NCBI GenBank assembly: GCA_017387565.1 | Contig: JAFOEY010000042.1 | Span: 1 to 62,766 of the forward strand | DNA length: 62,766 nt | Direction: 5' to 3' | Source of the DNA: Lachnospiraceae bacterium | GTDB lineage: Bacteria; Bacillota; Clostridia; Lachnospirales; Lachnospiraceae | Part shown: one piece after another, positions 1 through 60,118 of the stretch | Layout: each line of letters starts with the position of its first letter | Numbering within the stretch: the first letter of the stretch is position 1 | The notes under the pieces: generated by a model | What the model was told of the DNA's origin: nothing | The model's database searches: none | The model's input: only the letters and a program-made list of their open reading frames with translations | Made by a program: the position numbers and the translations under genes

Positions 1-148
1 CAACGGATTGCTACGCACTTTGTGCTCTCGCAATCCGTAAACAATCGAAATCCGCCCTAATCGGGCTACTTTCTCATGTTTTGCGGGTCCCAAAGTCATA
101 CTTTTTCATGCGAGCATGAAAAGTATGACCTTTTGACCCTAGTATCAT
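1..148 (+). repeat. MITE-like element, longest copy (copy 1)
   Basis: Left end is cut by the window start. Three modules are visible. Module A (1-38) has nested dyads GGATTGC/GCAATCC and GCAC/GTGC. Module B (about 39-90) contains GCCCTAATCGGGC. Module C (95-148) is a hairpin with arms at 95-110 and 115-129, ending in GACCCTAGTATCAT. Shorter derivatives recur across the window. No reading frame is conserved between copies, so it is noncoding. It lies downstream of serA. Confidence 0.8.
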
Positions 149-246
149 TTTATTACAATATATATCATACCATTATATGTAAAATTTTCATAATAAAAAC
201 TGTATAAAATATAAATATTTGTCCGCCGGCTTTTACGAGGCTTTGT

Positions 247-363
247 GACTTTCCTAGCGTCATGACGAACAAAAATATGCCCGGTTTCAACTGTTTGAAG
301 ACGAAGTCTGAGTTTTGAAACCGGGCATATAATATTTTTTGTGAGCATGTAGCTTAGAAAGTC
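247..363. repeat. Large imperfect palindrome
   Basis: The flanks 247-270 and 341-363 are imperfect inverse copies (GACTTTCCTAGC.. against ..GCTTAGAAAGTC). They surround a perfect 16-bp stem at 275-290/315-330. The whole 117-bp block could fold as one long hairpin. No coding potential is apparent. The remaining bases of the 1-427 gene-free stretch (about 149-246 and 364-427) are AT-rich and hold nothing I recognise. Confidence 0.6.
275..340 (-). terminator. Bidirectional terminator-like hairpin after serA
   Basis: A perfect 16-bp stem (arms begin ATATGCCCGG and end CCGGGCATAT) has a 24-nt loop. It is followed by a T-tract on the plus side (AATATTTTTT) and a shorter one on the minus side. It lies 3' of serA and probably ends the serCA transcript. 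Confidence 0.65.
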
Positions 364-427
364 TAAAAACCGAAGTACGAGGCTGCAAAGATATGTATTT
401 TTGCAAGAACGACTTGCATAACCATCC

Positions 428-1591
428 TTATTTTACAACACGGACACGGAATACACCTTCAACTGCATTTAATTTTTCAATTACATCGTCTGTTGCAGGT
501 GCTTCAATATCAAACATGGATACTGCATAATCACCACGTGATTTATTTGTCATATCAGAAATGTTGATATTTACATCGCCAAAACAAGCTGCAAGCTTGG
601 TAATGGTATTGGCAATATTTTTATGGAATACGGCAACTCGACCGGCCTTTGAACAAATTCCCATATCAATGGCAGGATAATTAACAGAATGTGTGATATT
701 ACCGTTTTCTAAATAATCAACCATTTCTTTAACGCCCATTACCGCACAGTTATCTTCAGATTCTTCTGTAGAAGCACCGATATGAGGCGTTACAATACAG
801 CCTGCTTTACCGGTTGTAATAGTATTCGGAAAATCTGTTACGTATTTACGAACCTTGCCCTCTTCTATGGCAGCGAGTACATCCTGTTCGTTGCATAATA
901 CATCTCTGGCAAAATTAAGGATTACAACACCGTCTTTCATCATATCAATGGCAGCTTTATTGATCATGCCTTTTGTAGAATCCAAAGCCGGTACATGTAC
1001 TGTAATGAAATCACATTCTTTATAGATATCCTCTACATTAACAACATGCTTAACGGCACGTGATAAACTCCATGCTGCATCTACAGAAAGGTAAGGATCA
1101 TATCCATATACTTCCATGCCTAAATTAATGGCTGCGTTGGCAATCTTTGCACCGATGGCACCAAGTCCGATGACACCAAGCTTTTTACCGTCAATTTCAG
1201 TACCGGCAAATTTCTTCTTTTCTTTTTCTGCAGCTTTTGCCACATCGGGGTTATCAGTCTGTGATTTTACCCATTCAATACCACCAACAACATCACGGGA
1301 TGCCAATAACATTCCGCAAAGAACCAGTTCTTTTACAGCATTGGAGTTTGCCCCGGGTGTATTAAATACAACCACACCTTTTTTTGCGAGTTCATCCAAA
1401 GGAATATTATTAACACCCGCACCTGCTCTGACAACAGCCAAAAGGTTATCAGAAAACTCCATGGAATGCATATCTGCACTTCTTACTAAGATACCCTGTG
1501 CTTCATTGATATCTTCTGTTTTTGTGTATCCTTCTCCAAAATGGTTAAGACCAACCTGGGCAATGGGATTTAAGCAATAATACTGATACAT
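428..1591 (-). CDS. serA: D-3-phosphoglycerate dehydrogenase, short ACT-type
   Basis: 387 aa. It oxidises 3-phosphoglycerate to 3-phosphohydroxypyruvate, the first step of serine synthesis in the cytosol. Visible features are an N-terminal substrate-domain RAGAGVNN (about 55-62), the Rossmann motif GLGAIG (142-147), Arg229 in NFARD, His270 in TPHIGAS, and a C-terminal ACT domain (about 317-387). The usual catalytic Glu of this superfamily (DVFxxEP context) is not seen: the equivalent stretch reads DFPNTITTG. It lies 124 bp downstream of serC in the same direction, so a serCA operon is likely. The start ATG follows an AGAAGGA-type ribosome site. Confidence 0.93.
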   Translation of the reverse strand: MYQYYCLNPIAQVGLNHFGEGYTKTEDINEAQGILVRSADMHSMEFSDNLLAVVRAGAGVNNIPLDELAKKGVVVFNTPGANSNAVKELVLCGMLLASRDVVGGIEWVKSQTDNPDVAKAAEKEKKKFAGTEIDGKKLGVIGLGAIGAKIANAAINLGMEVYGYDPYLSVDAAWSLSRAVKHVVNVEDIYKECDFITVHVPALDSTKGMINKAAIDMMKDGVVILNFARDVLCNEQDVLAAIEEGKVRKYVTDFPNTITTGKAGCIVTPHIGASTEESEDNCAVMGVKEMVDYLENGNITHSVNYPAIDMGICSKAGRVAVFHKNIANTITKLAACFGDVNINISDMTNKSRGDYAVSMFDIEAPATDDVIEKLNAVEGVFRVRVVK

Positions 1592-1715
1592 TTTTTATAA
1601 TCCTTCTTTCCTGAAACAAACTGTTCCATGATAATTTTGATATCTGACCGGCTCATTATCATCATAATATGAACCATTTAAATCCTAAAAAATTATACAA
1701 ATTGATGCACTTCAT

Positions 1716-2798
1716 TTATGAATTCTTTGCTTCGAAATCTTTCATAAATGCAACTAACTTCTCTACGCCTTCTTTGGGCATCGCGTTGTAGATAGATGCT
1801 CTCATACCGCCAACACTTCTATGCCCTTTTAAGTTTACAAATCCGGCTTCTGTTGCTTCTTTAACAAATTTAGCATCTAAATCTGCATCACCGGTAACAA
1901 ACGGAACATTCATTAATGATCTGTCTTCTTTTACAACCGTTCCCTTAAACATCTTGCTCTCATCAAGAAAATCATATAAGATTTTGGCTTTTTCTTCATT
2001 CTTTTCTTTCATGACAGAAAGGCCACCCATCTTCTTTAACCATTTGAATACTTTTCCGCAAATATAAATACCATAGCAGGGAGGTGTGTTATATAAAGAT
2101 TCTGCATCTGCATGGATTTTATATTTCATCATGGTAGGTGTACCGGGAAGTACATCTTCTGTAATTAAATCTTCACGGATAATCACAATTACGACACCGG
2201 CAGGTCCGATGTTTTTCTGAACGCCACCGTAAATCACACCATATTTGGTTACATCAACAGGCTCTGAAAGGAAGCAGGAAGAAAGGTCTGCTACCAGAGT
2301 TTTACCTTTTGTATTGGGTAACGTTTTATATTTTGTACCATAAATAGTGTTGTTTTCACAGATATATACATAATCTAAATCATCGGCAATATCCAAATCA
2401 CTGCAATCAGGAATATAAGAAAAAGTCTTATCTGCACTGGAAGCAAGTTCTACAGCCTCACCGTAGATTTTAGCTTCCTGATATGCTTTTTTCGCCCACT
2501 GTCCTGTTACAATATAGCCGGCTTTTTTATTTTTCATAAGATTCATGGGAATCATGGCGAACTGTAACGAAGCACCGCCCTGTAAAAACAACACTTTATA
2601 ATTATCGGGAATATTCATTAATTCTCTTAAATCTGCTTCTGCTTCTTTAATGATGTTGTCATATACTTTTGAACGATGGCTCATCTCCATAACGGACATA
2701 CCGCTTCCTTTGTAATCCAACATCTCATCTGCAGCTTCTTTTAATACTTCTTCAGGTAAAACTGCCGGACCTGCTGAAAAGTTATATACTCTAGACAC
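1716..2798 (-). CDS. serC: Phosphoserine aminotransferase
   Basis: 360 aa, the usual length. It transfers an amino group from glutamate to 3-phosphohydroxypyruvate with PLP and probably also serves PLP biosynthesis. It begins with the family signature YNFSAGPAVLPEEV. The PLP-lysine context is GGVQKNIGPAG, and the C-terminus has GHRSVGGMRASIYNA. The start is GTG at 2798, chosen because GGAGGG lies 7 nt upstream. It has its own sigma-A-like promoter (2869-2897) and precedes serA. Confidence 0.95.
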   Translation of the reverse strand: MSRVYNFSAGPAVLPEEVLKEAADEMLDYKGSGMSVMEMSHRSKVYDNIIKEAEADLRELMNIPDNYKVLFLQGGASLQFAMIPMNLMKNKKAGYIVTGQWAKKAYQEAKIYGEAVELASSADKTFSYIPDCSDLDIADDLDYVYICENNTIYGTKYKTLPNTKGKTLVADLSSCFLSEPVDVTKYGVIYGGVQKNIGPAGVVIVIIREDLITEDVLPGTPTMMKYKIHADAESLYNTPPCYGIYICGKVFKWLKKMGGLSVMKEKNEEKAKILYDFLDESKMFKGTVVKEDRSLMNVPFVTGDADLDAKFVKEATEAGFVNLKGHRSVGGMRASIYNAMPKEGVEKLVAFMKDFEAKNS

Positions 2799-2843
2799 TT
2801 AGAGTCCCTCCTCTATATTATATTATTAATCTATGTTACAGAA

Positions 2844-2857
2844 TGTGCAAATGCACA
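2844..2857 (-). promoter_or_regulatory. Leader hairpin of serC
   Basis: TGTGCA-AA-TGCACA dyad, extendable to about 9 bp with one G-T pair, lies in the predicted 5' leader between the promoter and the serC ribosome site. It is not followed by a T-run, so it may affect RNA stability or translation rather than terminate. Role unknown. Confidence 0.4.
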
Positions 2858-2868
2858 CTCCAAGAACC

Positions 2869-2897
2869 ATTGTAGTCTTGTATAAAATTTTCGTCAA
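2869..2897 (-). promoter_or_regulatory. Sigma-A-like promoter of serCA
   Basis: On the minus strand the -35 is TTGACG (2892-2897) and the -10 is TACAAT (2869-2874), with 17-bp spacing. Two direct copies of an AT-rich motif with core CTAACAGTTTT lie just upstream of the -35. Confidence 0.7.
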
Positions 2898-2900
2898 GAA

Positions 2901-2950
2901 AATATATAAAAACTGTTAGCATTAAAAATATATAAAACTGTTAGTATTAT
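2901..2950 (-). repeat. Two direct repeats upstream of the serC promoter
   Basis: Two about 25-bp units (2901-2924 and 2927-2950) share AATATATAAAACTGTTAG on the plus strand. They sit directly upstream of the serC -35, where an UP element or a regulator could bind. Confidence 0.5.
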
Positions 2951-2992
2951 AAAATCATGTCACATTTATTCGTCGCAAGCAGATAACTTGTA

Positions 2993-4396
2993 TCAATAAA
3001 ACATTACGACCGGTGTGCCCACTTCTGCCATATCATAAAGCTTACTTACCTCTGAAGTCGGCGTATTGATGCATCCGTGTGATCCGTTTGTCTTATATAT
3101 TTCTCCACCAAATTTTCCACGCCAGTTTGCATCATGAATACCAATGTGATTATAGACAGCCATCCAATATGAAACCGGTGTCTGATAATCCGGACCGATT
3201 AAAACACGATTACGTTGTTTATAATAAATATAGCATACCCGTTCCGGTGTTCCGTTGCCTCTGCCCGTACATCCGGTTACAACCGGAGTTTTGAGTTTTA
3301 GTTTTCCTTTGACATAGTAATAAAGCATCTGATTCGTCATATCCACCTCAATGTAGGTATTGCCGATATCGCTTGTTCCTTTCCCCCACCCCTTTTGACT
3401 GTAGATGGCATCAGAGGTTTCACTCTTTTGGGCATTAACCAATCCAATCAGATATTCTTTTTGCTTTTTTTGATTTAACTTATAACCATAGGTTCCCTCT
3501 TCAATGGTAACCGTACCACCTCGGGTCGGATGAAATGTCCATGGACCACCAACACTGTCATGCTTCTCGGCCCATCTTTCCACCGTTTTTGCGACTGCAT
3601 CCTCGTCAATCAGAAGGTTGCCATCTTCGTCCATGACAAAATCTTCATTTTCATCTATCTGTATCCAGGAAGCAATCACGGAAGCATCCACATTCTCATT
3701 TCCATTATAAAAACGGCAGACAATTTCTGTACTCTGCAGGTCATCAATTTTTTTCCAGAGCCTGAGTGTTTTTCTCATTTTTTCCGTGTATTCCATGGTT
3801 ATGTAACACGCTTCTTCTTCCAGATTGACATTGGGTTTTCCTGCCAAAACGGCGTCGACAATGGTATCAACCGTTAAATCGACATCTAAAAGATTTTGAG
3901 TTTCGTCAATCAGCTTATAACCATCCTGCGTTCGAACAATCTCTACCTTTACTTTCTTTGGATCTGTCTGATTTTTTATCAGATCCATCCCGGTAAGATA
4001 CTCCCGCAATTGTGTTTCATCACAAGTTCCTTTAGGCTCTAACGTTTCATTTTGAACTGTTCCGTTAATTAAATAAATTCCCCACATAAGCGGATTTTGT
4101 TTTTTCAAAATCCGTTTCAAATCATCCAGATAAGAATAGGTATAATCCATTTCATCAATAGGTATCTCTATTACATTTCCGAATTTGTCTTCTACAGAAA
4201 AAGTTGCCTTTTCAGTCTTTTCAACCAAATTATCATTTACTTCCACCGGTGTCATGCCTTCCGCATATATACCATTAATCATTACACCATTCATATACCT
4301 GCTTTGATATCTCCATGACATAAACAAATAAATGCCCAGACAAAGTATAATCGGAGTAAAAATGACAATTGCAAAAACTGTAATGACCTTTTTCAT
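2993..4396 (-). CDS. L,D-transpeptidase (YkuD) with peptidoglycan-binding region
   Basis: 467 aa from the chosen start. It cross-links or modifies peptidoglycan outside the membrane. After a short basic N-terminus there is one membrane segment (VITVFAIVIFTPIILCLGIY). A long middle region resembles the VanW-associated peptidoglycan-binding_4 domains. The YkuD domain follows, with catalytic SHGCIN (His440, Cys442). An upstream GTG at 4462 is in frame, but its extra 22 codons overlap an inverted-repeat element and lack a ribosome site. ATG 4396 has a weak AAGG 8 nt upstream, so I prefer it. It follows ilvB by about 200 bp, with no functional link evident. Confidence 0.85.
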   Translation of the reverse strand: MKKVITVFAIVIFTPIILCLGIYLFMSWRYQSRYMNGVMINGIYAEGMTPVEVNDNLVEKTEKATFSVEDKFGNVIEIPIDEMDYTYSYLDDLKRILKKQNPLMWGIYLINGTVQNETLEPKGTCDETQLREYLTGMDLIKNQTDPKKVKVEIVRTQDGYKLIDETQNLLDVDLTVDTIVDAVLAGKPNVNLEEEACYITMEYTEKMRKTLRLWKKIDDLQSTEIVCRFYNGNENVDASVIASWIQIDENEDFVMDEDGNLLIDEDAVAKTVERWAEKHDSVGGPWTFHPTRGGTVTIEEGTYGYKLNQKKQKEYLIGLVNAQKSETSDAIYSQKGWGKGTSDIGNTYIEVDMTNQMLYYYVKGKLKLKTPVVTGCTGRGNGTPERVCYIYYKQRNRVLIGPDYQTPVSYWMAVYNHIGIHDANWRGKFGGEIYKTNGSHGCINTPTSEVSKLYDMAEVGTPVVMFY

Positions 4397-4424
4397 CTTT
4401 TGTACCTTTTTTGTTACTTTTTTT

Positions 4425-4590
4425 AAATTGTGCATCTGGAGAACTTTGCGTATTCTACTCACAGACTGTATGTGGGCGTCAGCACTTAATGAGCAATTTA
4501 TTGCGAATTTAGTACTGTTACGTTGTCATACAAGTGAGAACGCGTCTGTGATAGAATATGCAAATTCGGAAGATGCACAATTTGAAAAAG
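4425..4590. repeat. Inverted-repeat element at the 5' end of the L,D-transpeptidase gene
   Basis: Imperfect terminal inverted repeats of about 38 bp (4425-4462 and 4553-4590) share AGAATAyGCAAA and AGATGCACAATTT. The inner 4503-4566 stretch recurs, without gaps, downstream of aroC. One arm runs into the possible upstream start of the L,D-transpeptidase. It is probably a small noncoding mobile repeat. Confidence 0.6.
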
Positions 4591-4601
4591 AGACTTTCTA
4601 T

Positions 4602-6281: not shown

Positions 6282-6331
6282 TTTCTACTCTCCCTTAATT
6301 ATAATACATATTTTAAATAACTATATGTAGT

Positions 6332-6385
6332 ATGATACCAGAATCAAAAGGTCATACTTTGTACGTAGTAATCCGTTGGTATCAT
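6332..6385 (-). repeat. MITE-like element, 54-bp copy (copy 2)
   Basis: Perfect 9-bp terminal inverted repeats ATGATACCA/TGGTATCAT. It retains the CAAAAGGTCATACTT end and the AATCCGT end and has lost the middle. It lies between ilvD and ilvB. Confidence 0.8.
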
Positions 6386-6425
6386 TTAGACATCTCTTGA
6401 ATTAGTTACTATGACATTCCTTAAA

Positions 6426-8099: not shown

Positions 8100-8177
8100 T
8101 ATCATTACCTGCCTTTTTCTTAACAAATCTCAAAACTTATATTTTCTAAAACATTTCAATTATATATGTATATCAAT

Positions 8178-8242
8178 ATGATACCAGGGTCAAAAGGTCA
8201 TACTTTTTATGCTCACATTGCGTAGCGATCCGTTGGTATCAT
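8178..8242 (-). repeat. MITE-like element, 65-bp copy (copy 3)
   Basis: Perfect ATGATACCA/TGGTATCAT ends, with the CAAAAGGTCATAC end and the GCGTAGCGATCCGT end kept. Directly beside it is a perfect 9-bp hairpin (8244-8265, GGATCAAAA/TTTTGATCC), just after the leuB stop. The repeat and hairpin together fill the leuB-ilvD gap. Confidence 0.8.
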
Positions 8243-8267
8243 GGGATCAAAATACCTTTTGATCCGA

Positions 8268-10089: not shown

Positions 10090-10191
10090 AATTGGACCTC
10101 CTGTAAATTCAACTAAAAAACATCATACACAAAACCCTGCTTTTCTTCAAGTAGTTTTGTGAATTTCATAAGTTTTTTAGAATTATACCAA

Positions 10192-10230
10192 GATTGCAAT
10201 AGCACAAAGTGCATAGCAATCTGTTGTCAT
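10192..10230 (-). repeat. MITE-like element, module-A fragment (copy 12)
   Basis: The reverse complement matches module A: CAGATTGCTATGCACTTTGT and GCAATCTTGGTATAAT. Ends are degenerate. It lies between tgt and yajC. Confidence 0.6.
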
Positions 10231-10236
10231 CTAAAT

Positions 10237-14834: not shown

Positions 14835-14882
14835 CAATTTCATCCTTTCATTTGAGAACTATATTACTATATATTTTGCCCC

Positions 14883-14944
14883 ATGATACCAACGGATTGC
14901 TACGCACTTTGCGCTCTCGCAATCCTAGTATCATTATAGTTAAC
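14883..14944 (+). repeat. MITE-like element, module-A copy (copy 4)
   Basis: 62 bp with ends ATGATACCA and TAGTATCAT. The interior is the nested dyad GGATTGC..GCAATCC. Modules B and C are missing. It lies between the flavodoxin and acetyltransferase genes. Confidence 0.8.
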
Positions 14945-15018
14945 GTCCGTTTTCTCGTCAAGTTGATGAATATGGAAACCAATATATTATTTTTGGAAAA
15001 TGCTTATAAAAAATGCAC

Positions 15019-15552
15019 CTATTCCCCTCTCACATAATCTACAATCGGATTGATATACTTTTTATCTGCTATGTCATAAGACTTTGAAAGCATCTCTCCC
15101 ATGATTTTTTCCTGTTCGGTTGCATCCTTTTTCTTTCTTACCATGGATGCAAATGCCTTCATAGTCAATTTCATAGGCAGTTTCATCTTTTCATAGGCAA
15201 TTCCACCCTGACAATAAAATGCCTTCGCATACTTACGCTCTTCGTCAGTCAATGCATTATGAAGAGCCACATCAACTTCCGGATTTTCATTGGGACTTGC
15301 ACCCACACAGAAAAGTACCAGTTTTTTCTCCTTCCAGTCAGGAATACGTTGTGTAAACCATTCACTGTTTACAATTTTTCCGCCCATGGCCCAGCCACCA
15401 TATATGATAACATCCGCCGTATCGAAATATTGAGCATCCTGCTTCTTGGCCTCCTCTAATGTGATGACATTTGCCTGCAGTTCCTCTGCCAACCAGTCGG
15501 CATATCGTTTGGTAAATCCTGTTTGTGATGAATAAACTATTATTGTTTTCAT
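15019..15552 (-). CDS. Flavodoxin-domain protein
   Basis: 177 aa. The N-terminal FMN-phosphate loop YSSQTGFTKRYADWLA is typical of flavodoxins and of the HemG-like flavodoxin_5 family. A GGWAMGGKI loop would contact the isoalloxazine. The C-terminal half (about 120-177) is longer than in classical flavodoxins. The gene overlaps the end of the marR-family gene by 4 bp, so both are probably one transcript and this protein is the regulator's likely output. The electron partner is unknown. Confidence 0.82.
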   Translation of the reverse strand: MKTIIVYSSQTGFTKRYADWLAEELQANVITLEEAKKQDAQYFDTADVIIYGGWAMGGKIVNSEWFTQRIPDWKEKKLVLFCVGASPNENPEVDVALHNALTDEERKYAKAFYCQGGIAYEKMKLPMKLTMKAFASMVRKKKDATEQEKIMGEMLSKSYDIADKKYINPIVDYVRGE

Positions 15553-18956: not shown

Positions 18957-19047
18957 ATTTTCACTCTCCTTTACCATAACCTATGCGAACTTTGTGAAAA
19001 TGTGAATATTTACATAAGATTGTATCCGATATAAATGATTAAATATC

Positions 19048-19097
19048 ATGATACCAACGGATTAATAAAATGTATGACCTTTTGACCCTGGTATCAT
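19048..19097 (+). repeat. MITE-like element, 50-bp copy (copy 5)
   Basis: Perfect ATGATACCA/TGGTATCAT ends. It keeps AACGGATT on the left and TATGACCTTTTGACCC on the right. It is an internal-deletion derivative between the DUF5662 and Cys-rich genes. Confidence 0.8.
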
Positions 19098-22464: not shown

Positions 22465-22522
22465 ATGATATCTGGGTAAAAAGGTCATACTTTTCATGCT
22501 CGCATGAAAAAGTGTAACTTGG
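22465..22522 (-). repeat. MITE-like element, module-C copy (copy 6)
   Basis: Carries AAGGTCATACTTTTCATGC and its inverse partner GCATGAAAAAGTGT. The module-A end is lost. It lies between the divergent HExxxH and DUF1292 genes. Confidence 0.65.
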
Positions 22523-22601
22523 GATCTATGTTTCCATATACTTTCTCCAAAACTTATGCTACAATTTTCAAAACAGATGAAAACACATGGAGGGAAATAA
22601 C

Positions 22602-29285: not shown

Positions 29286-29894
29286 ATGTGGAACTATGAA
29301 AAAAGACTGCAATTTCCCATTGATATTAAAACTCCCAATGCAGAAATTGCAAAAGTAATCATTACACAATATGGTGGACCGGATGGTGAACTTGGTGCAT
29401 CCATGCGCTATCTTTCTCAACGCTATACCATACCCTATAAAGAAGTTGCCGGATTATTGACCGATATTGGAACGGAAGAACTGGCGCATTTTGAAATGAT
29501 TGGTGCCATTGTTTATCAGCTTACCAAGAATTTGAGTATGGAAGAAATTGAAAAACAGGGATTTTCACCTTATTACGTGGACCACACGCTGGCACTTTGG
29601 CCGCAGGCGGCAGGTGGTATACCGTTTAATGCATGCGAATTCCAATCCAAAGGAGATGTCATTACTGATTTGACCGAAGATCTGGCTGCCGAGCAGAAAG
29701 CCCGCACAACTTATGACAACATTCTGCGACTTGTTAAAGATCCGGAAGTCTGCGCTCCAATCCGCTTTTTACGTGCAAGGGAAATAGTACACTTCCAGCG
29801 TTTCGGAGAAGCATTACGAAGAGTTCAGGAAAATCTTGATCCTGTCAACTTCTATCAATATAATCCCGAATTTGATACAAATCCAAATAGATAA
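29286..29894 (+). CDS. cotJC: Spore coat protein CotJC, manganese-catalase family
   Basis: 202 aa. It belongs to the manganese-catalase ferritin-like family, with paired Glu and His ligands in TEELAHFEMIGA (about 60-71) and AREIVHFQRFGEA. It is a coat protein that may protect spores from peroxide. A GGAGG site lies 10 nt upstream. The gene ends beside a MITE-like hairpin that probably serves as terminator. Confidence 0.92.
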   Translation: MWNYEKRLQFPIDIKTPNAEIAKVIITQYGGPDGELGASMRYLSQRYTIPYKEVAGLLTDIGTEELAHFEMIGAIVYQLTKNLSMEEIEKQGFSPYYVDHTLALWPQAAGGIPFNACEFQSKGDVITDLTEDLAAEQKARTTYDNILRLVKDPEVCAPIRFLRAREIVHFQRFGEALRRVQENLDPVNFYQYNPEFDTNPNR

Positions 29895-29907
29895 ACATGA
29901 GAAAAAA

Positions 29908-30036
29908 GCCAGATTAGGGCGGATTTCGAATGTTTATCTATTGTGAGAGCACAAAGTGCGTAGTAATCCGTTGATACCATGATTAAAGGGTTATACTTTT
30001 CATGCTAACATGGAAAGTATAACCCTTTTTTATCAT
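29908..30036 (-). repeat. MITE-like element with rearranged modules (copy 7)
   Basis: Contains modules B and A in minus orientation (GATTAGGGCGGATTTCGAAT, GAGCACAAAGTGCG, AATCCGT). An almost perfect module-C hairpin is then placed next to the module-A end instead of beyond B. The module order differs from copy 1, so the element was rearranged. It sits between the convergent cotJC and hypothetical genes. Confidence 0.75.
29983..30032. terminator. Terminator-like hairpin within repeat copy 7
   Basis: About 20-bp arms with one mismatch (AAAGGGTTATACTTTTCATG / its inverse) are followed by TTTTTT on plus and by a shorter T-run on minus. It could end both cotJC and the convergent gene. Confidence 0.65.
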
Positions 30037-30532: not shown

Positions 30533-30545
30533 ACGAATACCAAAG

Positions 30546-30883
30546 TGGACCAGACGGGAGTCGAACCCGTGTCCAAAAGCCTATTCCCTGTCCTTCTACT
30601 ATCATAGTCTGTTTTTTGACATTCCCTTGATCAAACGGGAACAAACACCCTTTTGACTTTGGTAGCTTCATAATACGCCCATGACCGCAAAGCTTAAGCC
30701 ATGTCGTTTCCTACATAGTCGATGCCCGCATCTTAAAGTGTAGGTGCCCTAAGTCGGACAGCTGCCAATTAGGCAGCGTATGCTAAATTATCTTCAGCGT
30801 TTATATTTATTTTTGCCATTTAACGCATTGCATGCGGATAGCTTCTCCAGCTGCAAAACCCCTGTCGAAACCTTTACTGGCCC
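30546..30883 (-). ncRNA. ssrA: Transfer-messenger RNA
   Basis: 338 nt. It rescues stalled ribosomes with SmpB. The 5' acceptor strand GGGCCAG pairs with CTGGTCC at the 3' end, followed by A; the CCA end is not encoded. A T-arm-like GGGTTCGACTCCC and the 5' GGTTTCGACAGGG are typical. The tag frame at 30769-30816 reads AKININAEDNLAYAA then stop. smpB lies 150 bp upstream. Confidence 0.93.
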
Positions 30884-33978: not shown

Positions 33979-34057
33979 TTTATGAAACATTGTCACATTG
34001 TCACAGGTACTGATTTATGAAACATTGTCACACAATATTTTATGAAACATCGTCACA
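33979..34057 (-). repeat. Three 19-bp direct repeats upstream of secG
   Basis: TTTATGAAACATTGTCACA at 33979-33997, 34014-34032 and 34039-34057 (one base differs in the last). A shorter ATTGTCACA follows the first. The position upstream of the secG -35 suggests binding sites for a regulator. Iterated ends of this kind also occur in IS21-type elements, so a relic of one is possible. Confidence 0.6.
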
Positions 34058-34127
34058 ATAAAACAAATCATATGATGAAATGAAAATGTTCAAATTAAGA
34101 ACCGCATCATATGATATTCCATATATT

Positions 34128-34598
34128 TTACATAACTTTGTTCATAAATCGATCCCATTCCATAATCGTCCGCTCACAAGAAATATCAATCCAATAGGTA
34201 TCATCCTCATTTAAATCAATCCCAACCTGATATACATAACCGCTGTCACTTTCGGACAAAGCAACCACATCATATAAAGCAACTTCTTTACACTTTTTAA
34301 GAAGTGCATCAATATTGGTCAGCAAAACAGGTTCATCGGCTTTTTCTTCTAATAAATTACCATTTGCATCGTAGTATTTATATCCTTCTTTTACTACATT
34401 GGTAATACTGGCGCCTACAAACCGCAGATTTGCCATATCCACAAATCGATCCACACACTCTTCATTATTCGGATTATTTCCCTTAACAATCAATCCCTTC
34501 AATACTAATGTTACACAACCGGAACTAACCTCAATATCCATAATAGTAACTTCTTCAAAGTTAAAATAGCGTAAATTGTTTTTGGTTTCAAATCTCAT
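34128..34598 (-). CDS. Conserved-looking hypothetical protein
   Basis: 156 aa, not recognised with confidence; perhaps one of the Lachnospiraceae-specific DUFs. It starts MRFETKNNLRYFNFEEVT and is mostly beta-strand-like and acidic, with no signal peptide or membrane segment. ATG follows GGGAG 9 nt upstream. It lies 37 bp downstream of spoIVB in the same direction, the place where spo0A sits in many spore formers. Confidence 0.6.
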   Translation of the reverse strand: MRFETKNNLRYFNFEEVTIMDIEVSSGCVTLVLKGLIVKGNNPNNEECVDRFVDMANLRFVGASITNVVKEGYKYYDANGNLLEEKADEPVLLTNIDALLKKCKEVALYDVVALSESDSGYVYQVGIDLNEDDTYWIDISCERTIMEWDRFMNKVM

Positions 34599-39482: not shown

Positions 39483-39527
39483 TTATGTTTCTCTTTTTTC
39501 TGATTAATATTATCTCTGTTTTATTAT

Positions 39528-39599
39528 ATGATTCCAGAGTTAAAAGGTCATACTTTTCATGCTCAAATAAAAAAGTATATCTTTTAAATCCAACATCAT
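39528..39599 (-). repeat. MITE-like element, module-C copy (copy 8)
   Basis: ATGATTCCA end then AAAAGGTCATACTTTTCATG with a degraded inverse arm. It lies between dxs and tlyA and could form a weak attenuator in the operon. Confidence 0.6.
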
Positions 39600-41473
39600 T
39601 ATATTGTATTGGTATTTGTTACTTCTGCTTTAATTCGCCCGGCAATCGTTTCAGCATCAATACCCAATTCTTTTTTCAGCAAATCAACATTGCCGTGCTC
39701 GATATAAGCATCCGGAAGTGCAATGGGAATTACTTGCATTTTTCTGTTTTTATCCTGTATATAGGTTAAAACTTTTTCACCAAAACCTCCGCATAAGACA
39801 TTTTCTTCCATCGTCACAATGACACTGTGATTTTCCATAAGCCGGTCAATCATTTCCGTATCAATCGGTTTTACAAAACGGGCATTGACTAGTGTAGGAT
39901 TCATCCCATCGGCTTCTAAAAGTTCCTTAACTTTATGTGCTGTTTCAACCATACTGCCGACTGCTAAAATCGCAATATCTTTTCCTGTTTGTAAAAGCTC
40001 GGCTTTACCATATTCGATGGGAGCACGGTATTCTTTCATAAGATCACAGGCCGTCCCTCTGGGATAACGAATAGCAATCGGTCCATCAAAACGAACGGCA
40101 AATTTCAACATATCCGATAATTCCCATTTATTTTTTGGAGCCATGATATGCATATTGGGAATGCCGGACAAATAGGAAAGATCAAAAATACCCTGATGCG
40201 TCTCGCCATCACTGCCTACAAGACCTGCCCGGTCAATCGCAAATACAACCGGAAGATTTTGAATACATACATCGTGCACAATCTGGTCATAGGCACGCTG
40301 CAAAAAAGAGGAATAAATAGCAACCACCGGTTTTAAACCGCCTGCCGCTAACCCCGCAGCAAAGGTAACCGCATGTTCTTCCGCAATACCGACATCAAAA
40401 AAGCGATCCGGATAACGACTGGAAAACCGTTTTAAACCGGTGCCATCCGGCATGGCTGCCGTAATAGCGACAATTTTATCATCTTTTTCAGCCAGTTTAT
40501 TGATAACCGTTGCAAATACATCTGTATAAGAAGCCTGTTCCTTCTGCTTTTTCGGAATGCCTGTTTCAATATCAAAAGGCTCGGCACCATGAAATCTGGA
40601 AGGATGTTTTCTCGCCGGTTCATATCCCTTTCCTTTTTGTGTAATCACATGAATCAGAACCGCATTTTTAACGCTTTTAGCTTCATTAAAAACCTTCCTC
40701 ATGGCTCTGATATCATGTCCGTCCACCGGACCCAGATAGGTAATACCCATATCTTCAAAAAACATTCCGGGAATCACCAGTTGTTTAATACTGTTTTTTA
40801 CGTTCTGGATGCCTTTTACAACTTTCTGACTCTGTTTGGAGCCATCCTTTAAACCGTAATAAATGCTATCCTTCAATCCAAGATATTTTTCATTGGTTCG
40901 AATCCCGTTTAAATAATTGGAAATTCCGCCGATATTTTCCGCAATCGACATATTATTGTCATTTAATACAATCATAAAATTGGAGCCCATACGGGAGGCA
41001 TTGTTCAAGGCTTCATATGCCATTCCTCCGGTTAAGGATCCATCTCCTATAACGGATACAACCTTATAATCTTCATGCAGGATATCTCTGGCTTTTACCA
41101 GTCCCAATCCGGCAGAAAGCGATGTAGAACTGTGTCCGGTATCAAACGCATCACACTGACTTTCTTTTCGCTTTGGAAAACCACTCATGCCTCCAAATTT
41201 TCGCAATGAATCAAAACCATCACGACGTCCGGTCAAAAGCTTATGTGTATAGGACTGATGTCCGACATCCCAGATAATTTTATCCTTTGGCAGATCCAAC
41301 ACCAGATGCAGAGCCATTGTCAGTTCAACAGTTCCCAGATTAGAGCCAAGATGACCTCCGTTTTCGCTGATTTTTTCAATCAGAAACTTACGGATTTCCT
41401 CTGCCAGCAATTTATAATCCTTGGGATCTATTTTTTTGATATCATTTTCTTTCTGTATTTGTTCTAAAATCAT
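39599..41473 (-). CDS. dxs: 1-deoxy-D-xylulose-5-phosphate synthase
   Basis: 624 aa. First enzyme of the MEP isoprenoid pathway, TPP dependent. It has GHQSYTHKLLTGR, the TPP motif GDGSLTGGMAYEALNNA, and the catalytic EEHAVTFAAG. I place the start at ATG 41473 (MILEQIQK). A TTG further upstream lies in the tandem repeats. The ribosome site AAGG is close to the start and is part of the first repeat unit. Product feeds ispA in the same operon. Confidence 0.94.
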   Translation of the reverse strand: MILEQIQKENDIKKIDPKDYKLLAEEIRKFLIEKISENGGHLGSNLGTVELTMALHLVLDLPKDKIIWDVGHQSYTHKLLTGRRDGFDSLRKFGGMSGFPKRKESQCDAFDTGHSSTSLSAGLGLVKARDILHEDYKVVSVIGDGSLTGGMAYEALNNASRMGSNFMIVLNDNNMSIAENIGGISNYLNGIRTNEKYLGLKDSIYYGLKDGSKQSQKVVKGIQNVKNSIKQLVIPGMFFEDMGITYLGPVDGHDIRAMRKVFNEAKSVKNAVLIHVITQKGKGYEPARKHPSRFHGAEPFDIETGIPKKQKEQASYTDVFATVINKLAEKDDKIVAITAAMPDGTGLKRFSSRYPDRFFDVGIAEEHAVTFAAGLAAGGLKPVVAIYSSFLQRAYDQIVHDVCIQNLPVVFAIDRAGLVGSDGETHQGIFDLSYLSGIPNMHIMAPKNKWELSDMLKFAVRFDGPIAIRYPRGTACDLMKEYRAPIEYGKAELLQTGKDIAILAVGSMVETAHKVKELLEADGMNPTLVNARFVKPIDTEMIDRLMENHSVIVTMEENVLCGGFGEKVLTYIQDKNRKMQVIPIALPDAYIEHGNVDLLKKELGIDAETIAGRIKAEVTNTNTI

Positions 41474-44893: not shown

Positions 44894-44957
44894 TGTGAAA
44901 CCCTGGTCTAAAGGCCATACTTATCATGCTCACATAAAAAAGTATGACTTTGAGATT
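44894..44957 (-). repeat. MITE-like element, module-C copy (copy 9)
   Basis: CTGGTCTAAAGGCCATACTT and CATAAAAAAGTATGACTTT form an imperfect hairpin. It lies in the predicted 5' leader of the asp23-nusB operon, just downstream of the -10. Confidence 0.65.
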
Positions 44958-44975
44958 CGCAAAATAACTTTGAAC

Positions 44976-49077: not shown

Positions 49078-49150
49078 ACTGTTATCTCCTCGTATCTTCA
49101 TCATTTTATGTATATGGATTGCTTCAATGACACGCAATTTTAGCAACCCT

Positions 49151-49247
49151 GATTTAGCAACAGATTGCTACTCCATTTGTTGTTCTCGCAATCCTAAAAA
49201 CATTCGAAATCTGCCCTAATCGGGCAACTTTTGACTCTAGTATGATA
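49151..49247 (+). repeat. MITE-like element, modules A and B (copy 10)
   Basis: Degenerate module A (AACAGATTGCTACTCC..CTCGCAATCC), then module B (CATTCGAAATCTGCCCTAAT), then the element end (TTTGACTCTAGTATGATAT) without the module-C hairpin. It confirms the order seen in copy 1 and lies between spoIIIAH and deoB. Confidence 0.7.
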
Positions 49248-49306
49248 TTATTACACAAAGACAGATAAATTATACCACATTCCATAAATTGTATAAAGTA
49301 TGGATT

Positions 49307-51405: not shown

Positions 51406-51415
51406 ATTCACTATA

Positions 51416-52848: not shown

Positions 52849-52859
52849 GCAATCGTCTC

Positions 52860-53054: not shown

Positions 53055-53065
53055 GGAACACTCCT

Positions 53066-53575: not shown

Positions 53576-53580
53576 TTTTA

Positions 53581-54546: not shown

Positions 54547-54580
54547 ATATCCTCCGTGTACAAACTATGTTTGTCCTTTA

Positions 54581-54609
54581 AATATATGAAATAGATATGA
54601 AAATAGAAC
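54581..54609 (-). promoter_or_regulatory. Sigma-E-like promoter of spoIIIA
   Basis: -35 GTTCTATT (54602-54609) and -10 CATATATT (54581-54588) with 13-bp spacing, matching the mother-cell expression of this operon in Bacillus. Confidence 0.55.
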
Positions 54610-54699
54610 TTAAAACTCTCATTTGAATTTGCGTTCACGGTATTTAACAATATATTCACATTTTACAAAATACTGAGAGCGTAAATCCGAAAGGAAGAT

Positions 54700-54733
54700 A
54701 AAAAAGGATTGTCACCCTCCGGTAACAATCCTT
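54700..54733 (-). terminator. Terminator overlapping the end of rseP
   Basis: 9-bp stem AAGGATTGT/ACAATCCTT (54704-54712 and 54725-54733), followed by TTTTTATC on minus. The stem includes the last codons and stop of rseP. Confidence 0.8.
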
Positions 54734-55815: not shown

Positions 55816-55816
55816 A

Positions 55817-56965: not shown

Positions 56966-57057
56966 CTTTTTATCCTCATCTGACAGAATATCATACTTCT
57001 ATCACAGTATAATGTTATTTTATCTCTCTTTGTTTATTTCATACGTATTTATTTTAA

Positions 57058-57094
57058 TGATATTGTAGGGCAAAAAGGTATTTTTCTGTTATCA
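57058..57094 (-). repeat. Possible degraded MITE-like element (copy 13)
   Basis: ATGATATTGTAGGGCAAAAAGG to TATCAT. Similar ends to the family but poorly preserved, and it overlaps the cdsA stop codon. Confidence 0.35.
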
Positions 57095-57913
57095 TTTTAA
57101 TAATAAAACAGCCATGTAATAAATCATCGGCGAAGTAAAAATCACACTGTCGAAACGATCCATAATACCACCATGTCCGGGAATGAGCTTGCCATAATCC
57201 TTGATGTTAAAATTTCTTTTGATTGCTGATGCGGCAAGATCACCGACCTGACTAATCATAGCTCCAACTGCCGAGATAACCGGGAATACCCAAAGCATAT
57301 TTTCATTGCTGGCTCCGGCGCGAATAAGGACAAAAGCATATAACAAACCTACAACAGCACTTCCGATTACACCACCAACAGCACCTTCTATTGATTTTTT
57401 CGGACTTAAAATCGGTGCTAACTTATGCTTGCCAATAGCCATTCCAACCAGATAAGCACAGGTATCACAAATCCAGGAGCTGATGAAAATGAGCCATACA
57501 ATATAGAATCCATTTTCCAAGCATCTGGTCATATATAAATAAGACAGCATGATTGGTGCATAGATAAAAGAAAATACAGCAGCCATAATCTGTTTTGCTT
57601 CATATTTTGGAAATGTAAATACATATACAAATAAAATAGAAACAATCGTCAGAGTGATGGTTAACATAACAAACGTTTCTGTGTTTGCAAAATAAATAAT
57701 CAGATAATATCCAATGATACCAAACAAACCAAACCACTCAATCAGACAAGGCTTTTTCATTTCTCCTCTGACTTTCATCGCCTTTGTCATTTCAAAATAA
57801 GCAATGGCAGAAATTGCCAGAGTAAAAAGATATAACCAAGATCCTCCTAAAGTCAGAACCGTTCCGATTACAAGTACCAAAACAACGGCACTCCAAAATC
57901 TGGCCTTAAACAT
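57092..57913 (-). CDS. cdsA: Phosphatidate cytidylyltransferase
   Basis: 273 aa. Makes CDP-diacylglycerol for phospholipids. About eight hydrophobic segments and the signature SAIKRNFNIKDYGKLIPGHG followed by GIMDRFDS. ATG is 2 bp after the uppS stop, preceded by AAGGAGGAG. Confidence 0.94.
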   Translation of the reverse strand: MFKARFWSAVVLVLVIGTVLTLGGSWLYLFTLAISAIAYFEMTKAMKVRGEMKKPCLIEWFGLFGIIGYYLIIYFANTETFVMLTITLTIVSILFVYVFTFPKYEAKQIMAAVFSFIYAPIMLSYLYMTRCLENGFYIVWLIFISSWICDTCAYLVGMAIGKHKLAPILSPKKSIEGAVGGVIGSAVVGLLYAFVLIRAGASNENMLWVFPVISAVGAMISQVGDLAASAIKRNFNIKDYGKLIPGHGGIMDRFDSVIFTSPMIYYMAVLLLK

Positions 57914-57915
57914 TT

Positions 57916-58623
57916 CTACTCCTCCTTAACATTTCCATAACGACGATCTCTTGCATTATAGACTGCAATCGCTTTTTCCAATTCTTCTTTTGTAAAAGCA
58001 GGCCACGGAACATCCGTAAAATAAAATTCCGAATATGCAAGCTGCCATAAAAGGAAATTGGATATACGTTCTTCGCCACTGGTTCGAATCATAAGATCCG
58101 GCTCCGGAATACCTTTAGTATCCAGATAAGTTGAAAATAACTCTTCCGTCATATCTTGCAAATCAATCACACCGTTTTTTGTATCCAGCATAATTTTTTT
58201 AACTGCACGGATTATTTCGTCACGGCTTCCGTAATTAAGCGCAATTTGAAAATGTAGACCATCATTGTTTACGGTTGCTTTTTCTAATTCATCAATCCGA
58301 TTGCGGATGTCCTCATCCAATCCACTCTTGTCGCCGATGACACGTACACACATCCGGTTCTTTTCAGCCGTTTTCAGACAGGTCTTCATATAATTACGCA
58401 AAAGTTTCATCAATGCATCGACTTCTTCTTTGGGACGATTCCAGTTTTCGGTAGAAAACGCATAGACAGTCAAATACTGTATTCCCATCTTATATGCTTC
58501 TTCACATATAATCTCTACATTTTTACTACCCTGTGCATGCCCATAATTTCTGGGCATCCCTTTGCTTTTCGCCCATCTTCCGTTTCCATCTAATATAATT
58601 GCAACATGATTCGGTACATTCAT
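57916..58623 (-). CDS. uppS: Undecaprenyl diphosphate synthase
   Basis: 235 aa. Extends farnesyl diphosphate to the C55 carrier used in wall synthesis. N-terminal IILDGNGRWAKSKGMPR and the C-terminal DLMIRTSGEERISNFLLWQ. First gene of the cluster, with GAGGA upstream. Confidence 0.95.
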   Translation of the reverse strand: MNVPNHVAIILDGNGRWAKSKGMPRNYGHAQGSKNVEIICEEAYKMGIQYLTVYAFSTENWNRPKEEVDALMKLLRNYMKTCLKTAEKNRMCVRVIGDKSGLDEDIRNRIDELEKATVNNDGLHFQIALNYGSRDEIIRAVKKIMLDTKNGVIDLQDMTEELFSTYLDTKGIPEPDLMIRTSGEERISNFLLWQLAYSEFYFTDVPWPAFTKEELEKAIAVYNARDRRYGNVKEE

Positions 58624-58741
58624 ATTCCGATTCCTCTTCTAATATTCCAATTTTGCCAATTCTCTACTATTTCAAAAAGCGTGGTCACCAAAACCGTCAC
58701 AACCACCGCTCATGGTTTTAATCGGATTAGTGCCATAACAC

Positions 58742-58768
58742 AAAAGAAGGGGCAGAATGCCCCCTTTG
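58742..58768 (-). terminator. Terminator after frr
   Basis: GC-rich stem GGGGC/GCCCC extended by AA/TT pairs, followed by CTTTTGTG on minus. Confidence 0.7.
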
Positions 58769-58779
58769 TTATGATCTGA

Positions 58780-59331
58780 TTATACTGTCAGAATTTCTTT
58801 TGACTTTTCTTCCACCATTTGGTCAATGGTTTTAATATATTTGTCTGTTAATTTCTGCAGTTCATCGGCAAGCTGTTTTGCTTCATCTTCAGATATTTCG
58901 CCTTTTCCAAGCTTTTTAAAGGCATCGTTACCGTCACGACGGGCATTTCTTACCACAACTTTATTTTCTTCACCTTTTTTCTTAATATCTTTCACTAAAT
59001 CTTTACGACGCTCTTCTGTCAATTCCGGAAAAACGATACGAACAACATTTCCGTCATTGGAAGGTGTAATACCTACATCAGACATCATAATGGCTTTTTC
59101 GATTTCTTTGATTAAACTCTTTTCCCAAGGCGCAATCTGAATCATTCTCGGTTCAGGAACACTGATATTACCTACACTCTGAATCGGTGTAGGTGTTCCG
59201 TAATAATCTACTTTTATTTTGTCGAGTACATGAGGATTGGCTCTTCCGGCACGAATCGAAGCAAAATCCGAAGCCAGAAAATCAATCGCTTTCTGCATTT
59301 TTTCATCATAAACTTTTAATCTTTCATCCAT
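58780..59331 (-). CDS. frr: Ribosome recycling factor
   Basis: 183 aa. Three-helix bundle plus domain II: RAGRANPHVLDKIKVDYYGTPTP, then VRNARRDGNDAFKK and a C-terminal helix. Lies 13 bp downstream of pyrH, the usual order. ATG follows GGAGG. Confidence 0.95.
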   Translation of the reverse strand: MDERLKVYDEKMQKAIDFLASDFASIRAGRANPHVLDKIKVDYYGTPTPIQSVGNISVPEPRMIQIAPWEKSLIKEIEKAIMMSDVGITPSNDGNVVRIVFPELTEERRKDLVKDIKKKGEENKVVVRNARRDGNDAFKKLGKGEISEDEAKQLADELQKLTDKYIKTIDQMVEEKSKEILTV

Positions 59332-59344
59332 TTTTATTATCCTC

Positions 59345-60040
59345 CTAAACCGTCACTTTCGTGCCGTTAAATTTTCCTTTCACGGTATTCACAATACTGT
59401 TTTCTTCATTCAGACTAAAAACCCACATAGGCATTTTGTTATCTCTTGCCATAATGGAAGCGGTCATATCAACAACCTGAAGGTTTTTCTCAACCACCTC
59501 TTCAATAGATAGTTCATCATATTTTTTAGCCTGTGGATTAACCTTTGGATCTGAATCATATACACCATCAATTGCCTTTGCTAACAAGACAACTTCAGCC
59601 TCTACTTCAATAGCTCTTAATAATACGCCTGTGTCTGTAGAAAAATAAGGATGACCTGTTCCCCCTGCAAAGAATACTACTTTTCCCTGTTTAAAATATT
59701 TATTTGCCCGGTCTTTGGAAAACAACTTTGTAAACGATCCACACGAAAAAGGGGTCAATATTTCTGTTTCCATTCCAACAGATCGGAATATTTCGGATAC
59801 ATAAATACAATTCATAACCGTCGCGAGCATACCAATCTGATCTGCCTTTGTGCGATCAATATTTTCACTCGTACGGCCTCTCCAGAAGTTTCCTCCGCCG
59901 ATAACAATTCCGACTTCAATGTTATCATCCACCAGTTGCTTTACCTGTTTTGCAACTCCTCTTACCGTTTCTTCATCAAAACCGGTCTTTTTCTCACCTG
60001 CCAGTGCTTCCCCACTGAGTTTTAACATAATTCTTTTCAT
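59345..60040 (-). CDS. pyrH: UMP kinase
   Basis: 231 aa. Amino-acid-kinase fold: MLKLSGEALAGE, GIVIGGGNFWRG and TGHPYFSTDTGVLLRA. Phosphorylates UMP to UDP. In many bacteria rpsB and tsf come before it, but here a bactofilin gene does. Confidence 0.95.
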   Translation of the reverse strand: MKRIMLKLSGEALAGEKKTGFDEETVRGVAKQVKQLVDDNIEVGIVIGGGNFWRGRTSENIDRTKADQIGMLATVMNCIYVSEIFRSVGMETEILTPFSCGSFTKLFSKDRANKYFKQGKVVFFAGGTGHPYFSTDTGVLLRAIEVEAEVVLLAKAIDGVYDSDPKVNPQAKKYDELSIEEVVEKNLQVVDMTASIMARDNKMPMWVFSLNEENSIVNTVKGKFNGTKVTV

Positions 60041-60071
60041 ATGTCTTACCTTCTTTTATTGAAAAAATATT

Positions 60072-60118
60072 ATGATGTTGGGGTCAAAAGGTATTATACT
60101 CCTAATGATACCAACGGA
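60072..60118 (-). repeat. MITE-like element, partial copy (copy 11)
   Basis: GGGGTCAAAAGGTAT (module-C end) joined to AATGATACCAACGGAAT (module-A end) in the opposite orientation. A rearranged copy between pyrH and the bactofilin gene. Confidence 0.6.

What the first reader, a model, noticed from the sequence alone, without database searches (positions are those of the whole stretch)
1..60118. A family of MITE-like intergenic repeats with 9-bp inverted ends
Ten clear and two or three degraded copies (1-148, 6332-6385, 8178-8242, 10192-10230, 14883-14944, 19048-19097, 22465-22522, 29908-30036, 39528-39599, 44894-44957, 49151-49247, 60072-60118) share ATGATACCA/TGGTATCAT ends and three modules: nested-dyad A, GCCCTAAT-containing B and hairpin C. 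Short copies are internal deletions with intact ends (50-65 bp), as expected of nonautonomous elements. None interrupts a gene. No transposase is in the window, and no target-site duplication beyond a possible AT is clear. I do not know a described family with this sequence.
Basis: partly seen in the sequence, partly recalled or inferred. Interest (0 to 1): 0.75.

Follow-up and report, generated by a model that had tools for sequence, protein, structure and literature searches.

The report
Mobile MITE carrying Clostridiales-1 RNA
The scattered short repeats are copies of a small jumping DNA element whose interior is a structured RNA already catalogued as a gut-bacterial small RNA, so in this genome that catalogue entry is spread by transposition, and it may travel as a portable messenger-RNA leader.

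Summary
The repeats are real. All 12 places match a profile of the full element at E<0.01; the reversed window gives none. They belong to Rfam RF01699, "Clostridiales-1 RNA". The genome has 140 listed matches at E≤1, 90 over Rfam's cut-off. It runs from TGATACCAGGGTCAAAAGG to an inverted TGATGTTGGGGTCAAAAGG, and the TGGTATCA taken for its right end is internal. Of 22 copies with both ends, 20 carry an exact 5-6 bp target duplication (shuffle mean 1.6). Six of 12 tested insertion sites are empty in sister species by alignment. It is therefore a mobile MITE. A likely helper was found elsewhere: IS1182-like insertion sequences with matching ends in a sister species and other genera. One end is 18/18 identical and one copy has a 6-bp duplication. 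None was found in this draft genome. The interior hairpin covaries (99 of 100 strings at one position). In other genomes, copies between co-directional genes are sense 44 to antisense 8. My searches showed no report linking RF01699 to transposition. An RNA-level function is plausible but unproven.

The parts
1..147 (-). near-complete copy (model 1-147 of 185), cut by the contig edge; RF01699 105 bits
6333..6388 (+). internal-deletion copy (model 1-28 + 130-157); an element is also at this place in G008 and G002
8179..8267 (+). internal-deletion copy (1-40 + 128-179); G008 and G002 have other AT-rich sequence of similar length there
10190..10231 (+). fragment (model 111-152); present in G002, absent in G008 and G006
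14872..14943 (-). internal-deletion copy (3' hairpin, model 109-166, joined to the left end by eye)
19047..19096 (-). internal-deletion copy (1-31 + 139-155); G002 has a different deletion derivative at the same place
22466..22523 (+). left-half copy (model 1-58)
29893..29981 (+). RNA-module copy lacking the left hairpin (model 67-155); RF01699 52 bits (called at 29853-29976)
29972..30028 (+). second partial copy joined to the previous one (model 1-54), ending with its hairpin; this hairpin is shared with G008 and G002
39529..39598 (+). internal-deletion copy with both true ends (TGATTCCA...CAACATCA); G008 has another piece of the element at this place
39524..39528 (+). target-site duplication TTATA, left copy
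39599..39603 (+). target-site duplication TTATA, right copy
44896..44965 (+). left-part copy (model 1-70); G008 has 21 other bases there
49146..49231 (-). degraded copy of the RNA module (model 76-157)
60073..60127 (-). right-end copy (model 132-185), true right end TGATGTTGGGGTCAAAAGG

Best explanation
The repeats are copies and internal-deletion derivatives of a 185-bp nonautonomous DNA transposon (a MITE) whose interior is the Rfam RF01699 Clostridiales-1 RNA fold. Shown: about 19-bp imperfect terminal inverted repeats, 5-6 bp AT-rich target duplications, empty sites in sister species, many copies, and patchy presence in the genus. Shown in a sister species and other genera, not in this genome: IS1182-like DDE insertion sequences (about 1.7-2.0 kb) whose ends match the MITE ends. 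Inferred: such a transposase binds the TGAT....GGGTCAAAAGG ends in trans, cuts and pastes the element, and leaves the duplication. Inferred: the interior hairpins persist because their sense-strand transcript is tolerated or useful in mRNAs, which would explain the sense-strand bias of copies in other genomes.
For: Profile hits at all 12 places, none in the reversed control. RF01699 matches, with 140 listed genome matches at E≤1, 90 over cut-off (150 of 192 first-look candidates were scored). TSD of at least 5 bp at 20 of 22 distinct both-end elements, shuffle mean 1.58, maximum 7 in 2000. Joined-flank test of 12 loci: the site is empty by alignment for 6 (L012, L013, L020, L025, L032, L034). 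It has the same length across the junction for L020, L025 and L032 in both G008 and G002 and for L012 in G008, and small differences for L013 and L034. L016 (G008) and L026 (both) also lack the element, but the site has changed. Four of 9 genus genomes carry the family and 5 have no match at E≤0.001. Of 6 IS loci, 4 have both ends within 3 mismatches of the MITE end pattern (L241/L218, L220, L221, L223), and the other two run into contig ends. Shuffled patterns hit a mean of 0.035 of those 4 loci, with a maximum of 3. The right end of L221 is 18/18 identical to the MITE right end. L220 has the duplication TCAATA. The transposase has DDE_Tnp_1_6, DUF772 and DDE_Tnp_1 domains above cut-off.
Against: No transposase with these ends was found in G000: IS630 gave 0 matches, the two rve hits and two DDE_Tnp_1 hits lack the ends in the flanks held, and a protein search for the IS1182-like transposase gave none at E≤1e-60. 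The assembly is a 69-contig draft. The IS scores 136 bits against NCBIfam IS1182, below its cut-off of 270. L221 and L223 show no exact duplication, and the right flank of L241 is missing because the contig ends there. L221 also has a stop inside its transposase match. One known IS1182-family member, IS1272, replaces palindromes without a duplication (PMC5678879, passages). Of the 12 empty-site queries, 1 was occupied in G002 (L033) and 3 were unresolved (L017, L018, L036). Only 2 of 27 RF01699 copies in other genomes have TGAT ends with a duplication of at least 5 bp, so not every RF01699 copy is a recent transposition.
Confidence: 0.78

Rival explanations
1. A MITE moved by a different transposase (IS21-, IS1634- or IS3-like, or one not held), with the IS1182-like match to its ends a coincidence of short sequences.
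For: No transposase with matching ends was found in the genome with most copies. IS1634 transposases are present in G000 and G008. I recall 5-6 bp duplications as typical of IS1634 (recalled, no call).
Against: The IS1634 loci L217 and L219 and the rve loci lack the ends in the flanks held. Four of 6 IS1182-like loci have both ends, against a mean of 0.035 of 4 loci for shuffled patterns (maximum 3), and one end is 18/18 identical.
Confidence: 0.15
2. A REP/BIME-like palindromic repeat copied by a Y1 (RAYT) transposase that recognises the hairpin.
For: The interior has hairpins and a GNAG motif at a hairpin foot. REP elements carry a GTAG-type guide (recalled).
Against: G002 and G008 carry many copies but no Y1 transposase hit. 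Clean 5-6 bp duplications are not expected of a Y1 mechanism (recalled). G000 and G006 do have Y1 genes.
Confidence: 0.03
3. An IS630/mariner-type TA-duplicating MITE such as ERIC, Correia or RUP.
For: The outermost bases often read TA next to TGAT.
Against: Duplications are 5 or 6 bp. PF13358 gave 0 matches in all four carrier genomes of the genus.
Confidence: 0.01
4. RF01699 is first of all an mRNA-leader RNA with its own conserved role, and the MITE is one lineage that captured it. Many copies are not mobile at all.
For: In other genomes copies between co-directional genes are sense 44: antisense 8, and 37: 0 if the five genomes that have antisense copies are set aside, a split made after seeing the data. 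A ribosome site plus start lies within 160 nt downstream in 52 of 87, against 12 of 87 for the mirror position. The hairpin covaries. Only 2 of 27 copies in other genomes have a duplication.
Against: Neighbouring genes are diverse. In G000 co-directional orientation is 17: 8 (p 0.11) and starts are 18: 16, as for a recent mobile element, although there too the gene downstream of the RNA is on the same strand in 33 of 46. Selection against antisense copies could give the bias without a function.
Confidence: 0.35

Closest known systems
Rfam RF01699 Clostridiales-1 RNA (Weinberg et al. 2010, PMC2864571; passages and the Background section with Table 1 read)
   Same: Same sequence and fold; 90 matches above the curated cut-off in this genome.
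   Different: Table 1 lists it as probably an RNA, probably not cis-regulatory, in Clostridiales and human gut. It is named once in the main text, which has no 'inverted repeat' and one 'transpos-' word, for another motif. Its supplement could not be read. Here it is the interior of a duplication-flanked element 32 bp longer than the model match.
Bacterial MITEs with a helper insertion sequence (general class, recalled)
   Same: Short, no transposase gene, terminal inverted repeats, target duplications, empty sites, internal-deletion derivatives, ends shared with an IS.
   Different: The interior is a covarying structured RNA that is also present in copies without MITE ends, with a sense-strand bias in other genomes.
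IS1182-family insertion sequences, including IS1272 (PMC5678879, passages read)
   Same: The candidate helper has DDE_Tnp_1_6 and DUF772 domains and its best NCBIfam match is IS1182.
   Different: It scores below the IS1182 cut-off. The MITE, and the L220 insertion sequence, have a 5-6 bp duplication, whereas IS1272 replaces an inverted repeat without one.
ERIC, Correia and RUP repeats (recalled)
   Same: Intergenic, palindromic, internally deleted, high copy number.
   Different: They are TA-duplicating, IS630-type elements as I recall; no such transposase was found in the four carriers here.

Membership tests
Rfam RF01699 Clostridiales-1 | covariance-model score at or above 48 bits | tested here: met
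   Window 1-147 (105 bits) and 29853-29976 (52 bits); 90 of 140 listed genome matches. The other window copies fall below the cut-off.
MITE | short, with terminal inverted repeats and no transposase gene | tested here: met
   185-bp elements with about 19-bp imperfect inverted ends
MITE | target-site duplication of constant length class | tested here: met
   20 of 22 with 5 or 6 bp
MITE | empty sites in relatives | tested here: met
   6 of 12 queried loci by alignment, 2 more element-free but changed, 1 occupied, 3 unresolved
MITE | ends shared with an autonomous element | tested here: met
   4 of 6 IS loci (L241, L220, L221, L223); none found in the own genome
IS1182 family (helper) | NCBIfam NF033551 score at or above 270 | tested here: not met
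   136 bits; it is IS1182-like, not a filed member
IS1182 family (helper) | DDE_Tnp_1_6 and DUF772 domains above Pfam cut-offs | tested here: met
IS1272-type transposition | replaces a palindrome, no TSD | tested here: not met
   5-6 bp duplications and empty sites
REP/RAYT | Y1 transposase in carrier genomes | tested here: not met
   0 in carriers G002 and G008; 1 in G000, 2 in G006
IS630-type MITE | TA duplication and DDE_3 transposase | tested here: not met
IS1634-type helper | same ends on an IS1634 element | tested here: not met
   L217 and L219 lack the ends in the flanks held

The most novel reading that the evidence does not exclude
RF01699 is a mobile mRNA-leader cassette. A structured RNA hairpin (CATGA-GNAN-GNAGC...GCGGA-NTNC-GAATG, with covarying GNAN/NTNC) is spread by IS1182-like transposition through this order of gut Clostridia. 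After insertion it is kept mainly on the sense strand ahead of many unrelated genes, where it acts on the transcript, for example by binding a protein or by protecting or processing the mRNA. The same hairpin has been taken up by at least one other repeat family of these bacteria.
Probability: 0.35. Interest if true: 0.82.

Novelty: new variant of a known kind. Interest (0 to 1): 0.63.

Why it matters
A candidate small RNA published in 2010 without a role is placed on a transposon with defined ends, duplication and a candidate helper, so its copy number in genomes such as this one can be read as that of a mobile element. The sense-strand bias in other genomes makes a concrete question testable: do bacterial MITEs carry and spread a working RNA leader? 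It also gives an annotation warning, since RF01699 calls in a genome like this one are largely transposon copies and their remains.

Tried and rejected
IS630, Y1, and rve and DDE_Tnp_1 genes of the own genome were examined as helpers and set aside for absence, lack of co-occurrence, or lack of matching ends. A 5.7-kb interval between two MITE ends in L056 looked like a composite element, but it holds housekeeping genes. Plasmid records at E≤1e-40 and a pattern-based scan of viral contigs gave no relatives of the transposase. Automatic TSD finding in 105 pattern matches with enough flank gave 7 with a duplication, at least one of them doubtful. A loose end pattern (4 mismatches) was too permissive as a control: 16 pairs in 1.36 Mb, and 32 of 900 shuffled tests. 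It was replaced by 3 mismatches, where 3 pairs in 1.35 Mb all lay in loci that hold MITE copies. In one copy (L012) no sense-strand promoter-like site was found; 2 lie on the other strand, against 1.2 in shuffles.

A first, cruder orientation count gave starts downstream on the same strand against the mirror position of 7: 9 in 25 own copies, 7: 2 in 10 of G006/G002/G008, 8: 0 in 15 of other genomes and 29: 11 in 63 pattern loci. Searches replaced it.

Rows dropped before counts: 126 matches reduced to 100 distinct strings., 2 of 29 loci skipped as short. One search, short-motif and off-centre matches left out., 10 of 48 own loci and 13 of 87 other loci had a side without a called gene. The orientation sets are chosen from the listed matches, not all matches. 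The 37:0 subset was chosen after seeing the counts.
Full report
What is there. Rfam places the repeats in RF01699, Clostridiales-1 RNA: window 1-147 on the minus strand with 105 bits and 29853-29976 on the plus strand with 52 bits, against a cut-off of 48. Weaker matches lie at 14884-15037 and 49152-49270. The whole genome (2.9 Mb, 69 contigs) has 140 listed matches at E≤1, of which 90 reach the cut-off; 150 of 192 first-look candidates were scored. The window is the complete contig C49, so the first copy is cut by the contig edge. Fourteen other contigs also begin in, or within 7 bases of, a copy.

Anatomy. The full element is 185 bp: TGATACCAGGGTCAAAAGG, a long hairpin, an RNA module with the motif CATGAG...CGAATG, a second hairpin, TGGTATCA, and then a terminal hairpin TGGGGTCAAAATACCTTTTGACCCCAACATCA. 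The true ends are TGATACCAGGGTCAAAAGG and, read inward from the other side, TGATGTTGGGGTCAAAAGG. Folded alone, one copy has -87.1 kcal/mol as RNA, with z = -9.6. As DNA it folds almost the same way, z = -9.65, so structure by itself does not say which strand type matters. Two diverged subfamilies with other ends occur in the same genome (L011 and L027).

Mobility. Among the fetched own-genome loci (L001-L038, L050-L069) and the window there are 22 distinct elements with both ends. Twenty have an exact duplication of 5 or 6 bp, one has 4 and one has none. Shuffled flanks give a mean of 1.58 and a maximum of 7 in 2000 trials. In the window, 39529-39598 has TTATA on both sides. I joined the flanks of 12 such loci, with one duplication removed, and searched three sister species. 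Alignments show the site empty for 6 of the 12. It has the same length across the junction for L020, L025 and L032 in both G008 and G002 and for L012 in G008. L012 in G002 has diverged, L013 in G008 differs by two bases in length, and L034 in both is 6 bases shorter. L016 in G008 and L026 in both also lack the element, but the site has changed. L033 is occupied in G002. L017, L018 and L036 were unresolved. In the genus, 4 of 9 genomes have the family (115, 46, 37 and 15 matches at E≤0.001) and 5 have none. Within the window I tried 11 of the 12 copies against G008, G002 and G006. G008 gave both flanks for 8 of 11. Some copies are shared (6333; 19047 with a different internal deletion in G002; 39529, where G008 has another piece of the element). 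Others are absent from one or both relatives (10190, 44896, the left half at 29893). At 8179 both relatives have unrelated sequence of similar length.

The likely helper. Among DDE transposases of the carrier genomes, one in G006 (L218, the same stretch as L241:3430-5300) lies between TGATTTAAGGGTCAAAAGG and an inverted TGATTTGAGGGTCAAAA, 1871 bp apart, and has a 546-aa reading frame. Its domains are DDE_Tnp_1_6, DUF772 and DDE_Tnp_1, and its best NCBIfam family is IS1182 with 136 bits, below that model's cut-off of 270. A protein search found strong relatives (E≤1e-60) in 5 of 150 genomes of the family. In L220 the element of 1850 bp begins TGATGTTGGGGTCAA at both ends and is flanked by TCAATA on both sides. 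In L221 (2019 bp) the right end is identical to the MITE right end over 18 of 18 bases, but its flanks show no exact duplication and its transposase match has a stop. Four of the 6 IS loci have both ends within 3 mismatches; the other two, L222 and L224, run into contig ends. Shuffled patterns hit a mean of 0.035 of the four IS loci, with a maximum of 3. No such helper was seen in the own genome, so movement in trans, or by a helper now lost or unassembled, is inferred.

The RNA. The titles are Lachnospiraceae, its genera as I recall them, or other Clostridia. The motif pattern fixes neither partner of two facing positions. Over 100 distinct strings, 99 pair at the first position (G-C 42, C-G 30, A-T 23, T-G 2, T-A 2; shuffle mean 43.9, maximum 61) and 94 at the second (shuffle mean 67.7, maximum 79). 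Relatedness of the sequences inflates such numbers, but the first position uses all four Watson-Crick types. The same hairpin also occurs in a different repeat (TTGAACGCAG...CTGCGTT, hairpin, TCCGCTTTAC) in Acetitomaculum, Lachnospira, Blautia and others, and in stand-alone form. Rfam at its gathering scores gives nothing at the stand-alone motif in the loci that I scanned (18 loci in all).

Orientation. RF01699 occurs in 50 of 295 genomes of the order at E≤1e-5, in 24 of 130 genera. I compared the direction of flanking genes for 48 own copies and 87 copies of other genomes. Between co-directional genes the RNA strand is sense in 17 and antisense in 8 of the own copies (p 0.11), and sense 44 to antisense 8 elsewhere. 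Five genomes (G035, G147, G397, G425, G432) hold all 8 antisense cases; the rest are 37 to 0, a split made after seeing the data. In the own genome, too, the gene downstream of the RNA is on the same strand in 33 of 46, while the upstream gene is 18 to 22. A ribosome-site-plus-start within 160 nt downstream on the same strand is found for 52 of 87 against 12 of 87 for the mirror position, and for 18 against 16 of 48 in the own genome. The genes ahead are diverse by eye, so this is no gene-specific riboswitch. Gene calls are heuristic. The bias fits either a function in mRNA or removal of antisense copies. That the sense copies are older is an inference, not a measurement.

Literature. The main text of Weinberg et al. 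2010 (PMC2864571; passages and the Background section read) names Clostridiales-1 once, in Table 1, as probably an RNA, probably not cis-regulatory and probably not a switch. Searches for the names Clostridiales-1 and RF01699 returned that paper and three others (PMC7302867, PMC3466250, PMC7682815), which I saw only as listings. Searches for MITEs with Lachnospiraceae, IS1182 with MITE, structured RNA with MITE, and Roseburia or Butyrivibrio repeats showed no description of this element in their listings. PMC5678879 (passages) describes IS1272, an IS1182-family member that replaces inverted repeats without duplication, unlike the element here. Rfam 12.0 (PMC4383904, passages) already warns that MITEs can confound microRNA annotation in eukaryotes.

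Verdict. The element is a real, mobile MITE with a known RNA fold inside. Transposition is well supported, the IS1182-like helper is likely, and an RNA-level role is open.

Noticed in passing
L078, L081, L096, L114, L142, L162: A second, different repeat of about 165 bp (TTGAACGCAG...CTGCGTT, the same hairpin motif, TCCGCTTTAC) in Acetitomaculum ruminis and Lachnospira; shorter derivatives keep the 3' part. In L142 it seems to sit inside a transposase-like gene (read by eye, not tested).
   Followed up: partly
L116:7220-7364, L126:4-340, L129:4600-4995: Tandem arrays of the hairpin or element with 57, 150 and 175 bp periods.
   Followed up: no
L054, L065, L067, L068 (own genome): One-ended truncated copies whose inner edge lies at or within a few bases of what looks like a neighbouring gene's stop codon (by eye), as if deletions ran up to the reading frame and stopped.
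   Followed up: no
contigs C2, C4, C7, C13, C16, C19, C21, C27, C29, C30, C43, C44, C48, C49, C56 of G000: Contigs begin in, or within 7 bases of, a copy: the repeat breaks the assembly.
   Followed up: no
window 33982-34140: A 157-bp stretch with repeated TTATGAAACATTGTCACA-like units is replaced by 4 bases in G008.
   Followed up: no
window 30543-30883 (-): tmRNA gene near the composite copy at 29893-30028.
   Followed up: no
L220:1117-1389: A further pair of similar inverted ends (273 bp apart) lies directly beside the IS1182-like element, perhaps another nonautonomous relative.
   Followed up: no
phage records MT835871.1 and six others; Butyrivibrio fibrisolvens plasmid NZ_CP146964.1: Sequences 70-89% identical to all or part of the element on human-faecal phage records and, at 75%, on a plasmid: possible vehicles between hosts.
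   Followed up: no
G161 L246 and G302 L289: Copies lie ahead of the same gene (saccharopine-dehydrogenase-like by eye) in two species placed in one genus, so some insertions may be old and kept.
   Followed up: no
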